Of a stretch of DNA of 64,000 bases, positions 37,753 through 41,576 are shown one piece after another. The DNA is taken from positions 62,001 to 126,000 of the forward strand of contig JANQNU010000084.1 in the NCBI GenBank assembly GCA_028279405.1. The letters run 5' to 3'. The notes under the pieces were generated by a model that saw nothing but the letters and a program-made list of their open reading frames with translations, searched no databases and was not told the origin of the DNA. Numbering within the stretch: the first letter of the stretch is position 1; every line of letters begins with the position of its first letter. Source of the DNA: Phycisphaerae bacterium. Its GTDB lineage: Bacteria > Planctomycetota > Phycisphaerae > UBA1845 > Fen-1342. Made by a program: the position numbers and the translations under genes.

Positions 37753-38403
37753 TCATCCTCTGCGTCGGCTGGCGGCAAGCAGTGCCCCCAGCGCCAACAG
37801 CCCCAGGCTGCCGGGTTCGGGTACGGCGATGAACCGCATGATCGGTTGATCCGTGGTTCCGAGGCCGTCCGGGCTGAGTTGCAGGTCGAACGAATCGCCG
37901 ACGCTTTGCGAGGAGTAGCTCGAGCCGGCACCGAGGTTCTCGGCCGGGTCACCGAGCGGGTCCGCAACCCAATTCACGCCGGCGCCGCTGTTGCCGGTAA
38001 AGGCCTGGGCCCAACCGACCATCCCGACGAAGTACTCGGTACCGCCGGTAAGCTGGATCGGCGCGTCGAACGAGCCGCCGAGCCATGGTCCTTCGACGAA
38101 ATCGGTTCCGTTCCACGTGAACGAATCGATCAACGTGCCGCCGGCCGCGGGCCGGTCGGTGTAGATGCCGGTCGTGAACGTGAAGTCGTTGTTGATGTTC
38201 ACCGCCGTTGCGAGCTGGGTCTGGATCCCCGTCAGCTCGACATCCGCACCAGGCGTCCAGTACCAGCCGATCGAATCCAGCGCCCAGAAGAAGTTGCCCG
38301 GGCTCTGGTCCTCGTTGAGCGATTGGATGACCTGGCCGGCGGGACTGCCGACAGTGCAAAACAGCATCAGAACCGCTGCCACCACAAAGCTACGCGTGCG
38401 CAT
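37753..38403 (-). CDS. Small PEP-CTERM secreted protein
   Basis: 216 residues, with GAAGGGGAT before the ATG. A signal peptide (MRTRSFVVAAVLMLFCTVGSPAG) precedes a beta-rich domain of the choice-of-anchor/DUF4082 kind (WYWTPGADVELTGIQTQLA, DFTFTTGIYTDRP, LTGGTEYFVGMVGW). The end is VPEPGSLGLLALGALLAA-SRRR, the PEP-CTERM sorting signal. It is probably exported and anchored or released after exosortase cutting. It converges on mutY with a 54-base gap. Confidence 0.9.
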   Translation of the reverse strand: MRTRSFVVAAVLMLFCTVGSPAGQVIQSLNEDQSPGNFFWALDSIGWYWTPGADVELTGIQTQLATAVNINNDFTFTTGIYTDRPAAGGTLIDSFTWNGTDFVEGPWLGGSFDAPIQLTGGTEYFVGMVGWAQAFTGNSGAGVNWVADPLGDPAENLGAGSSYSSQSVGDSFDLQLSPDGLGTTDQPIMRFIAVPEPGSLGLLALGALLAASRRRG

Positions 38404-38892: not shown

Positions 38893-39432
38893 ATGAGGGT
38901 CGTCACACTACGTTGCGCCAATTGCGGCGCTCCACTCTCGGTCAGGCACAAGGTGCGCTTCGTCAGGTGCAACTTCTGCGATTCGCAGCTCGAGATCCAT
39001 CGTGAGGATAGCGCCACATACAGCACCGCCACTCAGGAAGTCCGTGAGGCTCGAGTTGCAAAGCTGCAGAAATCCGTCGAACGACTTCAACTCGGCAACC
39101 AACTGGAGCAGCTCGATCGCGAATGGCTGATGCGGCAGGAAGAATTCCTGACTAGCGGAAAACGTGGCGAAAAGTGCCGCGCGTCCATGACAGGCGGGGT
39201 GATCAGCATTGTCCTCGGTGTCTCCGGCGCCGGGGTCGGCCTTATCGCGCTGCTCGGCGGTGTTGGTATGTGCTTGTGTATTTCACTGCCGGTCAGCATC
39301 GTGTTGATCGCAAACGGCATTCATATGTTGGCCACGGCCGATCGGTACCAGCAAGCATTGGCGGAGTACAAAGGTCGGCGATCCGACCTGCTGGCGCTGG
39401 TACGCGTGCTCGACCAAGCGCGTCCAGAATGA
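38893..39432 (+). CDS. Zinc-ribbon/two-TM paralog, copy 1 (type A)
   Basis: 179 residues; GGGGAGG before ATG 38893. The N-terminus is a zinc ribbon (RCANCGAPLSVRHKVRFVRC then CDSQ), giving CxxC...CxxC. A charged helix with the phrase KSVERLQLGNQLEQLDREW follows, then two membrane helices at about 96-145 (ISIVLGVSGAGVGLIALLGG, LCISLPVSIVLIANGI). A short tail (DRYQQALAEYKGRRSDLL) ends the chain. Its closest relative is copy 3 at 40006. The family is not one I recognise; the zinc ribbon resembles planctomycete small membrane proteins of unknown role. Confidence 0.82.
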   Translation: MRVVTLRCANCGAPLSVRHKVRFVRCNFCDSQLEIHREDSATYSTATQEVREARVAKLQKSVERLQLGNQLEQLDREWLMRQEEFLTSGKRGEKCRASMTGGVISIVLGVSGAGVGLIALLGGVGMCLCISLPVSIVLIANGIHMLATADRYQQALAEYKGRRSDLLALVRVLDQARPE

Positions 39433-39445
39433 GGAGCTGTTGGGG

Positions 39446-40009
39446 ATGAAAGTCGTCACGCTACGTTGCGCCAATTGTGGGGCTCCGCTCTCGGTCAAGC
39501 ACAGGGTGCGCTTCGTCACGTGCAACTTCTGCGATTCGCAGCTCGAGATCCATCGCGAGAATAGCGCCACGTACAGCGCCGCCACTGAAAAGGTGCCTGA
39601 AGCTCGAACGGTGAAGCTCGAGAAGTCCGTCGAACGGCTGCAACTCACGAACGAGCTCGAACGGCTCGATCAGGCGTGGATGATTAGTCAGGAGCTGTAC
39701 ATGGTCTCCGGGAAGGACGGGTCGCGATCGGTCCCAAGCTACTTCGACGGCTTGCTCATGATGTTCGTCGCGTGTGGCGTTATCGTTGCTGCCGTTGCCA
39801 TCGGACGTAACGCCCCCTTCTTTAGACCGATCATGTATGGCTGGGGATTCGGGGCAGTAATCTTCATCATCAAGGCAATTCACACACTCGTGCTGGCAAA
39901 CCGATACAGTGCCGCGCACGCTGATTATGAGCAGCAACGGTACGACATTCTCGCTCGCCTTGGATCCACCCGACAATCCAACTCCCGTGACTCAGGAGCG
40001 AGGGGATGA
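39446..40009 (+). CDS. Zinc-ribbon/two-TM paralog, copy 2 (type B)
   Basis: 187 residues; GAGGAG nine bases before ATG 39446. The first ~80 residues are almost the same as copy 1 (RCANCGAPLSVKHRVRFVTC, CDSQLEIHRE, KSVERLQLTNELERLDQAW). After that the chain differs: SQELYMVSGKDGSRS, then two membrane helices (MMFVACGVIVAAVAIG, MYGWGFGAVIFIIKAIHTLVL) and NRYSAAHADYEQQRYDILARL. The membrane part matches copy 4, not copy 1. Its stop overlaps the start of copy 3 (ATGA). Confidence 0.82.
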   Translation: MKVVTLRCANCGAPLSVKHRVRFVTCNFCDSQLEIHRENSATYSAATEKVPEARTVKLEKSVERLQLTNELERLDQAWMISQELYMVSGKDGSRSVPSYFDGLLMMFVACGVIVAAVAIGRNAPFFRPIMYGWGFGAVIFIIKAIHTLVLANRYSAAHADYEQQRYDILARLGSTRQSNSRDSGARG

Positions 40010-40542
40010 AAGTCGTCAGTCTATGTTGCGCCAACTGCGGAGCGCCACTGTCGATCAAGCACAAGGTGCGCTACGTAACGTGCAATTTCTGTGACTCGCG
40101 GCTCGAAGTACACCGCGAGAAAGACACCACCTACAGCACCATCGTCGAAGCGATCAACGAGCGCACCAAACGGCTCGAGCAATCCGTCGAACGACTCCAA
40201 CTCAGCAATCAACTGGACCGCCTCGACCGCGAGTGGATGATGCGACAGGACGAATTCATGGTCACCGACAAGCACGGCCACAAGCACCGCGCTTCTACGA
40301 CTGGTGGAGCGATATCCCTCGCCTTGGGTATTGCTGGGTGCGGCTTTGGCTTCATCGCACTTCTCGGTGGTATGGCGCCCTGCCTTTGTTTCGCGCTGCC
40401 GTTCAGCATCGCCCTGATCGCGAACGGTATCCAGTTGTCAACGAAAGCTGATCGCTATCAACAAGCGTTGGCGGCGTACAAGCGTCGGCGATCCGACCTG
40501 CTGGCGCGGATACGCGTACTCGAGCAATCACGTCCACAATGA
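40006..40542 (+). CDS. Zinc-ribbon/two-TM paralog, copy 3 (type A)
   Basis: 178 residues; coupled to copy 2 by a four-base overlap, with AGGAG upstream. The zinc ribbon is CANCGAPLSIKHKVRYVTC / CDSRLEVHRE. The DREWMMRQDEF segment, the membrane pair (ISLALGIAGCGFGFIALLGG, LCFALPFSIALIANGI) and the DRYQQALAAYKRRRSDLL tail all match copy 1, so copies 1 and 3 form type A. Probably an inner-membrane protein; role unknown. Confidence 0.82.
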   Translation: MKVVSLCCANCGAPLSIKHKVRYVTCNFCDSRLEVHREKDTTYSTIVEAINERTKRLEQSVERLQLSNQLDRLDREWMMRQDEFMVTDKHGHKHRASTTGGAISLALGIAGCGFGFIALLGGMAPCLCFALPFSIALIANGIQLSTKADRYQQALAAYKRRRSDLLARIRVLEQSRPQ

Positions 40543-40555
40543 GGAGTTCGTGGGG

Positions 40556-41089
40556 ATGAAAGTCGTCACGCTACGTTGCGCCAATTGTGGTGCTCCACTC
40601 TCGGTAAAGCACAGGGCCCGCTTCGTCGCGTGCAACTTCTGCGATTCGCAGCTCGAGATCCACCGCGAGAAGAGCGCAACCTACAGCACAACGACGGACA
40701 ACACGCATAAGGCACGAACACGGAAGCTGGAAAAGTCGATCGAACGGCTACAATTCACCAACGAACTCGAGCGGCTCGATCAGGCGTGGTTGATGGAACA
40801 AGATCAGTACATGAAAACCGGTGACGACGGGGAACGGTCAGTGGCGAGCCACGGTAGCGCTCTCGGGACGCTGGTCACCGGAGTCGGTCTGGTCGTTTTC
40901 ACACTCCATTCTCTCGCGTACCGATTCCCCGCACCTGTCACGATAATCGCAGGACTCGTTAGCCTTGCCGTCTTCGCCAGCGCCCTGCATGAGATGCACA
41001 AGGCCGACCGCTACAAGCAAGCGAGACATGACTACGAGCGGCGTCGGTACGATTTGCTCGCCCGGATGAACCGGCCCAAAGGGGGCTGA
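40556..41089 (+). CDS. Zinc-ribbon/two-TM paralog, copy 4 (type B)
   Basis: 177 residues; GAGGAG before ATG 40556. The spacer between copies 3 and 4 (AATGAGGAG...TGGGGATGAAAGTCG) is nearly the same as between copies 1 and 2. That repeats the same junction and supports duplication of a two-gene block. The zinc ribbon (CANCGAPLSVKHRARFVAC, CDSQLEIHRE) is followed by RLDQAWLMEQDQYMKTGDDGE, two membrane helices (LGTLVTGVGLVVFTLHSL, VTIIAGLVSLAVFASAL) and DRYKQARHDYERRRYDLLARM. The middle is closest to copy 2. Confidence 0.82.
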   Translation: MKVVTLRCANCGAPLSVKHRARFVACNFCDSQLEIHREKSATYSTTTDNTHKARTRKLEKSIERLQFTNELERLDQAWLMEQDQYMKTGDDGERSVASHGSALGTLVTGVGLVVFTLHSLAYRFPAPVTIIAGLVSLAVFASALHEMHKADRYKQARHDYERRRYDLLARMNRPKGG

Positions 41090-41243: not shown

Positions 41244-41576
41244 ATGAGCGTACGTAATTGGTTGTTAGTCGGGGCACTGGGAGCGGCCGGCTTTGTAAGT
41301 CTGCCGGCCGCAGAAGCAGGTGGGTTCTACTTCCGGGCAGGTTACGGCGGCGGCGGCGCCTGCGGGCCGCGCGGCTTCTACGGTGGCCCGGTCTGCCGCG
41401 ACTTCGGCTTCCGGTCCTACAACGGCTTCGCGCCGCGGTACTATCGCGACTGCGGCCCGCGCTACTACGCTCCACGCCGTGTTTATCGCGGTTATCGGTA
41501 CTACGGAGGTCCGCGCGGCTATTACGGTCGCGGTTACTACGGACGCGGATCCTTCCGTTACGGCTACCGCTACTAG
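41244..41576 (+). CDS. Small secreted Gly/Tyr/Arg-rich protein
   Basis: 110 residues; GAGGTAATTCTC before ATG. A clean signal peptide (NWLLVGALGAAGFVSLPAAEA-GG) is followed by a low-complexity mature part of Gly, Tyr, Arg and Phe (GYYGRGYYGRGSFRYGYRY at the end, RYYGGPRGYYG inside). Three Cys are present (ACGP, VCRD, DCGP). Such composition suits a structural or adhesive surface protein. Base composition alone could also produce this pattern, but the signal peptide and ribosome site argue that it is a real gene. Confidence 0.75.
   Translation: MSVRNWLLVGALGAAGFVSLPAAEAGGFYFRAGYGGGGACGPRGFYGGPVCRDFGFRSYNGFAPRYYRDCGPRYYAPRRVYRGYRYYGGPRGYYGRGYYGRGSFRYGYRY

What the first reader, a model, noticed from the sequence alone, without database searches (positions are those of the whole stretch)
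38893..41089. Four tandem zinc-ribbon/two-TM paralogs in A-B-A-B order
All four share an almost identical N-terminal zinc ribbon and helix, but the membrane and C-terminal parts fall into two types. Copies 1 and 3 share RQEEF/RQDEF, FIALLGG-like helices and a QQALA.YK.RRSDLLA tail; copies 2 and 4 share LDQAW, a different membrane pair and a DYE.RRYD.LAR tail. The spacer between 1-2 and 3-4 is nearly identical, and 2-3 overlap by ATGA. This fits duplication of an A-B pair, and suggests that A and B proteins work together, perhaps as a membrane complex with a zinc head. I know of no described family with this layout.
Basis: partly seen in the sequence, partly recalled or inferred. Interest (0 to 1): 0.82.

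Follow-up and report, generated by a model that had tools for sequence, protein, structure and literature searches.

The report
Tandem zinc-ribbon membrane hairpin paralogs
Four side-by-side bacterial genes encode small membrane proteins with the same zinc-binding head but two kinds of membrane anchor; they belong to an uncharacterised, patchily distributed family that has repeatedly duplicated in tandem, probably to make mixed-subunit membrane complexes.

Summary
Window 38893-41089 carries four intact, same-strand paralogs: a CxxC...CxxC ribbon, a long helix, two membrane helices and a C-terminal helix. Trees of the membrane half group copies 1+3 and 2+4, and all four together, so A-B-A-B by duplication of an A-B pair is supported. 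Copy 1's ribbon is closer to copy 2's than to its sister copy 3's, so the heads were probably partly homogenised by gene conversion. The proteins belong to a family that no Pfam or NCBIfam cut-off claims, found in 27 of 392 genomes of the host phylum, 44 of 170 of one family within it and 10 of 236 of a Verrucomicrobia class, mostly as single genes without conserved neighbours. Tandem arrays recur in at least nine other genomes, often a canonical copy with a divergent or ribbon-less one, but by separate duplications, not as orthologs of this A and B. AlphaFold models of A and B are confident and alike: a LysW-like ribbon on a stalk above a two-helix hairpin. Best explanation: cytoplasm-facing ribbon heads on hetero-oligomeric membrane hairpins, assembly inferred and not shown. 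SLATT/DUF4231 and dynamin-like homology was tested and not found.

The parts
38893..39432 (+). Copy 1 (type A): zinc ribbon, stalk helix, two TM helices, C-terminal helix; 179 aa
   Evidence: ORF; family HMM match; C-half sister of copy 3; ribbon closest to copy 2
39446..40009 (+). Copy 2 (type B): same layout, derived membrane half; 187 aa
   Evidence: ORF with RBS-like GGAG upstream; groups with copy 4
40006..40542 (+). Copy 3 (type A), ATGA overlap with copy 2; 178 aa
   Evidence: ORF; AlphaFold model mean pLDDT 94.6
40556..41089 (+). Copy 4 (type B); 177 aa
   Evidence: ORF; AlphaFold model mean pLDDT 93.0, same secondary-structure order as copy 3
39430..39445 (+). Stop codon and spacer 1-2 with GGAG
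   Evidence: Near-identical to the 3-4 spacer
40540..40555 (+). Stop codon and spacer 3-4 with GGAG
   Evidence: With the preceding codon, 15 of 19 bases identical to the 1-2 spacer

Best explanation
A four-gene operon of a family of membrane-anchored zinc-ribbon proteins seen in the host phylum (probably Planctomycetota) and in Verrucomicrobia. Each subunit has a LysW/RPB12-like ribbon head (C8, C11, C26, C29), a stalk helix (about 47-84), a two-helix membrane hairpin (about 98-148) and a C-terminal helix running on from TM2. The head probably faces the cytoplasm. Type A keeps the family consensus and type B has a derived membrane half. The most likely working mode is hetero-oligomerisation: A and B hairpins and stalks assemble in the inner membrane and present several near-equivalent ribbon heads to one cytoplasmic partner, protein or nucleic acid. 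Shown: sequence, paralogy, order, common predicted fold, recurrence of tandem sets. Inferred: topology, zinc binding, co-assembly, the shared partner.
For: Same predicted fold for A and B with high confidence. Four cysteines conserved in 90-100% of 31 members. Ribbon matches LysW structures at probability 0.98-1.00. Membrane halves diverge while heads stay alike; the copy 1 ribbon shares 25 sites with copy 2 only against 4 with copy 3 only, p=1e-4. Tandem canonical+divergent sets recur: G092, G446, G474, G510, G512, G600, G634, G639; G572 is a closer pair and G860 a tandem pair not examined further. In G474 and G510 (same genus) members a, b and c of the array each group with their counterpart in the membrane half, so distinct paralogs are maintained. 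Some partners lack the ribbon but keep the hairpin, as expected if the membrane part can act as an assembly subunit. Tight spacing and the ATGA overlap suggest translational coupling.
Against: No direct test of A-B contact. Most relatives are single copies, so heteromers are not needed for the basic function. No conserved neighbours give a pathway. Fast divergence of paralogs also fits separate roles or relaxed constraint. Positive-inside evidence is modest for copy 2.
Confidence: 0.42

Rival explanations
1. The four copies are independent paralogs: each homo-oligomerises, shares the same cytoplasmic partner through the head, and recruits it to different membrane sites or membrane partners through its own hairpin.
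For: The family normally occurs as a single gene. Fast, paralog-specific membrane halves. Conserved head.
Against: Maintained adjacency, short spacers and recurrent pairing with ribbon-less partners favour joint action.
Confidence: 0.3
2. Neutral or dosage expansion: tandem duplication with ribbon gene conversion and drifting membrane halves, without a new function.
For: Patchy distribution, no other member in the genome or in the sampled genomes of its family. The contrast of ribbon and C-half divergence resembles that of orthologs between species.
Against: All four frames are intact with dN/dS below 1. Orthologous a/b/c arrays persist in G474 and G510.
Confidence: 0.15
3. A membrane-shaping or junction protein that works like eukaryotic lunapark: hairpin plus stalk and zinc-dependent dimerisation.
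For: Shared parts list: two-TM hairpin, coiled coil, and a zinc motif region used for dimerisation in lunapark (PMC6739345). PVC bacteria are known for internal membranes (own knowledge).
Against: Domain order is reversed and no lunapark family match appeared in the Pfam scans. An analogy only.
Confidence: 0.06
4. A two-TM conflict effector (SLATT-like) or a relative of dynamin-like LeoBC.
For: DUF4231 best E 3.8e-4 in 2 of 31 members. LeoBC profile matched on stalk+hairpin in 13 of 31, best 6e-8.
Against: hhalign with a DUF4231 protein gives probability 1%. hhalign with 11 dynamin-like proteins scores no better than the reversed control. No defence genes recognised nearby.
Confidence: 0.04

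Closest known systems
LysW/ArgW carrier proteins and RPB12-type zinc ribbons
   Same: Ribbon fold: LysW 3vpb_E at Foldseek probability 1.00, rmsd 1.3 over 47 columns; weak sequence match to residues 6-41
   Different: No carrier C-terminus with terminal glutamate motif; here followed by a stalk and two TM helices
Lunapark (eukaryotic ER)
   Same: Two-TM hairpin, coiled coil and zinc motif in one membrane protein (PMC6739345)
   Different: Order reversed; no sequence match; analogy only
SLATT/DUF4231 two-TM effector domains
   Same: Two TM helices followed by a long helix
   Different: No profile-profile support; no associated conflict genes recognised
LeoBC / dynamin-like proteins
   Same: Helix, TM hairpin, helix tip
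   Different: No GTPase; similarity equals the reversed control

Membership tests
The ribbon-hairpin family described here | Four ribbon cysteines | tested here: met
   C8/C11/C26/C29 present in all four copies
The ribbon-hairpin family described here | LDxxW motif, two TM helices, Y-x(3)-R-R-x(2)-L-like tail | tested here: met
   Alignment of 31 members, the W and one tail R invariant; models
LysW | Ribbon fold | tested here: met
   Foldseek 3vpb_E and 5eio_C
LysW | Small soluble carrier with C-terminal acceptor glutamate motif | tested here: not met
   Membrane proteins with different C-termini
Lunapark | Lunapark zinc-ribbon Pfam model | tested here: not met
   Not among Pfam matches at E up to 10 for the window copies nor among the 25 families listed for 31 members
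Lunapark | TM hairpin N-terminal to coiled coil and zinc motif | tested here: not met
   Here the zinc ribbon is N-terminal
SLATT/DUF4231 | Sequence profile match | tested here: not met
   Below the 24.7-bit cut-off in copy 4; hhalign probability 1% against one member
Dynamin-like LeoBC | GTPase domain | tested here: not met
   Absent; proteins of 177-187 aa
Dynamin-like LeoBC | Homologous stalk/paddle | tested here: not met
   hhalign forward no better than reversed control
A-B heteromer | Physical association of A and B | not testable with these tools
   Only single-chain prediction was available

The most novel reading that the evidence does not exclude
A class of modular bacterial membrane complexes in which interchangeable, conversion-homogenised zinc-ribbon heads are displayed by hetero-oligomers of diversified two-helix membrane hairpins, with repeated evolution of head-less partner subunits.
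Probability: 0.2. Interest if true: 0.6.

Novelty: new variant of a known kind. Interest (0 to 1): 0.4.

Why it matters
It points to an unnamed, patchily distributed membrane protein family in bacteria known for unusual cell architecture. It also gives a natural experiment: tandem paralogs whose heads stay alike while membrane halves diverge. Recurrent tandem pairing and ribbon-less partners make the heteromer idea directly testable with two-gene constructs.

Tried and rejected
Pfam, NCBIfam, PHROGs and PADLOC scans: only short ribbon or helix matches below cut-offs. DUF4231/SLATT: profile comparison negative. Dynamin-like LeoBC: 13 of 31 members matched the stalk/hairpin, but the reversed control scored as well. 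Conserved neighbourhood: none beyond close relatives and the Verrucomicrobia context. Protein-level ribbon/membrane disparity as proof of gene conversion: rejected, since orthologs between species show it too; only the site-pattern conflict supports conversion, and the AU test on the ribbon tree does not exclude 1+3 (p=0.25). Promoter/terminator scan uninformative. No relatives found in viral contigs or plasmids at the sensitivity used. Paper searches for a description of the family gave nothing.

Full report
Observation. The four reading frames are real and intact, on the + strand, at 38893-39432, 39446-40009, 40006-40542 and 40556-41089. Copies 2 and 3 overlap by ATGA; copies 1-2 and 3-4 are separated by 13 bases after the stop codon, and these spacers, stop and preceding codon included, match at 15 of 19 positions. 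A search of the whole genome finds no further member at a convincing score.

Paralog pattern. On an alignment of 33 and then 61 relatives, the half from the LDxxW motif to the C-terminus groups copies 1+3 (100/99; 99/95) and 2+4 (91/68; 100/96), and all four form one clade (97/90; 98/92). Forcing 1+2 or 3+4 together costs 24 and 21 log-likelihood units, although the AU test on so few columns does not formally reject them (p=0.18, 0.13). Synonymous divergence of the C half is similar for 1-3 (1.01) and 2-4 (1.23) and higher or saturated between types (1.86-3.04), as expected if an A-B pair duplicated once. The B type evolved faster at the protein level (dN 0.72 against 0.23).

Heads. Ribbons of copies 1, 2 and 4 are 85-89% identical; copy 3 is 70-72% identical to the others. 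At the DNA level copy 1's ribbon agrees with copy 2 and not copy 3 at 25 sites and the reverse at 4 (p=1e-4; third positions 12 against 2, p=0.013), against the membrane-half tree. A scan for runs of shared sites flags pairs 1-2 and 2-4 in the ribbon-coil part (p=0.0002 each), and pair 1-3 at the C-terminal end (p=0.0024). I read this as gene conversion or ribbon transfer between copies. It is suggestive: the ribbon tree does not reject 1+3 (AU p=0.25), and a strong ribbon/membrane contrast in protein identity also occurs between orthologs of different genomes and, in same-codon counts, between orthologs of G474 and G510.

Family. An alignment search found relatives in 27 of 392 genomes of the same phylum, 44 of 170 of one family in it, few genomes of the same order, and three Verrucomicrobia, later 10 of 236 genomes of that class. 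Weak hits at the tail of these lists may be ribbon-only or hairpin-only. Most relatives are single genes. Neighbourhoods are not shared except among close relatives.

Tandem arrays elsewhere. G092 has three copies, G474 three, G510 three plus a separate pair, and G446, G512, G572, G600, G634 and G639 two each; G860 has two. The partner is often divergent, and in G446, G474, G510 and G512 one copy lacks the ribbon; G646 has ribbon-less units following each other, some in one frame. Divergent partners from different genomes do not form one clade, so the A-B pair of this window is not an ancient conserved pair; tandem pairing evolved repeatedly. In G474 and G510 the a, b and c members are orthologous, so arrays can be maintained.

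Structure. AlphaFold2 models of copy 3 (A) and copy 4 (B) have mean pLDDT 94.6 and 93.0 and the same order of elements: ribbon strands, stalk helix from about 47 to 84, short strand pair 85-96, TM helix from about 98 to 120, and one continuous helix from about 124 to 174 containing TM2 and the tail. pTM is 0.70, so the arrangement of the parts is less sure. Foldseek finds only the ribbon (LysW 3vpb and 5eio, probability 1.00 and 0.98); nothing solved matches the whole.

Mechanism. Most likely the head is cytoplasmic, displayed by a two-helix membrane hairpin, and A and B assemble together. The first part rests on sequence and models, the second on tandem maintenance, likely translational coupling and recurring head-less partners. 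The head's partner is unknown; ribbons of this fold commonly bind proteins or nucleic acids (own knowledge).

Known families. No Pfam or NCBIfam cut-off is met by the window copies, and only weak ribbon or helix matches occur among the 31 members. SLATT/DUF4231 and dynamin-like LeoBC were tested by profile comparison and not supported. Lunapark shares the parts list but not order or sequence.

Verdict. A real, under-described family with an unusually large local array.

Noticed in passing
L077:6621-7016, L101:1478-2311, L072:5588-5923, L102:2841-3455: Tandem partners that keep the stalk and membrane hairpin but have lost the zinc ribbon; in G446 the start MKLIPLN is kept and the ribbon is missing.
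   Followed up: partly
L107:505-3746: Frames in which several ribbon-less two-TM units follow each other in tandem, some within one frame.
   Followed up: no
L017:6001-6534, L018:6001-6534, L019:6001-6531: In Verrucomicrobia the relative sits just downstream of an rsmB-like gene; in L017 and L018 a nuoF-like gene follows on the opposite strand.
   Followed up: partly
window 41244-41576: Short + strand frame with a signal-like start and a Gly/Tyr/Arg-rich body, just after the array and before convergent ftsW/mraY/murF-like genes.
   Followed up: no
window 37753-38403: Exported protein with a C-terminal PEP-CTERM-like sorting signal on the - strand upstream of the array.
   Followed up: no
window 39268-39281 and 40379-40391 (approximate): Type A copies carry a Cys-Leu-Cys near the turn between the two membrane helices; type B copies do not.
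   Followed up: no
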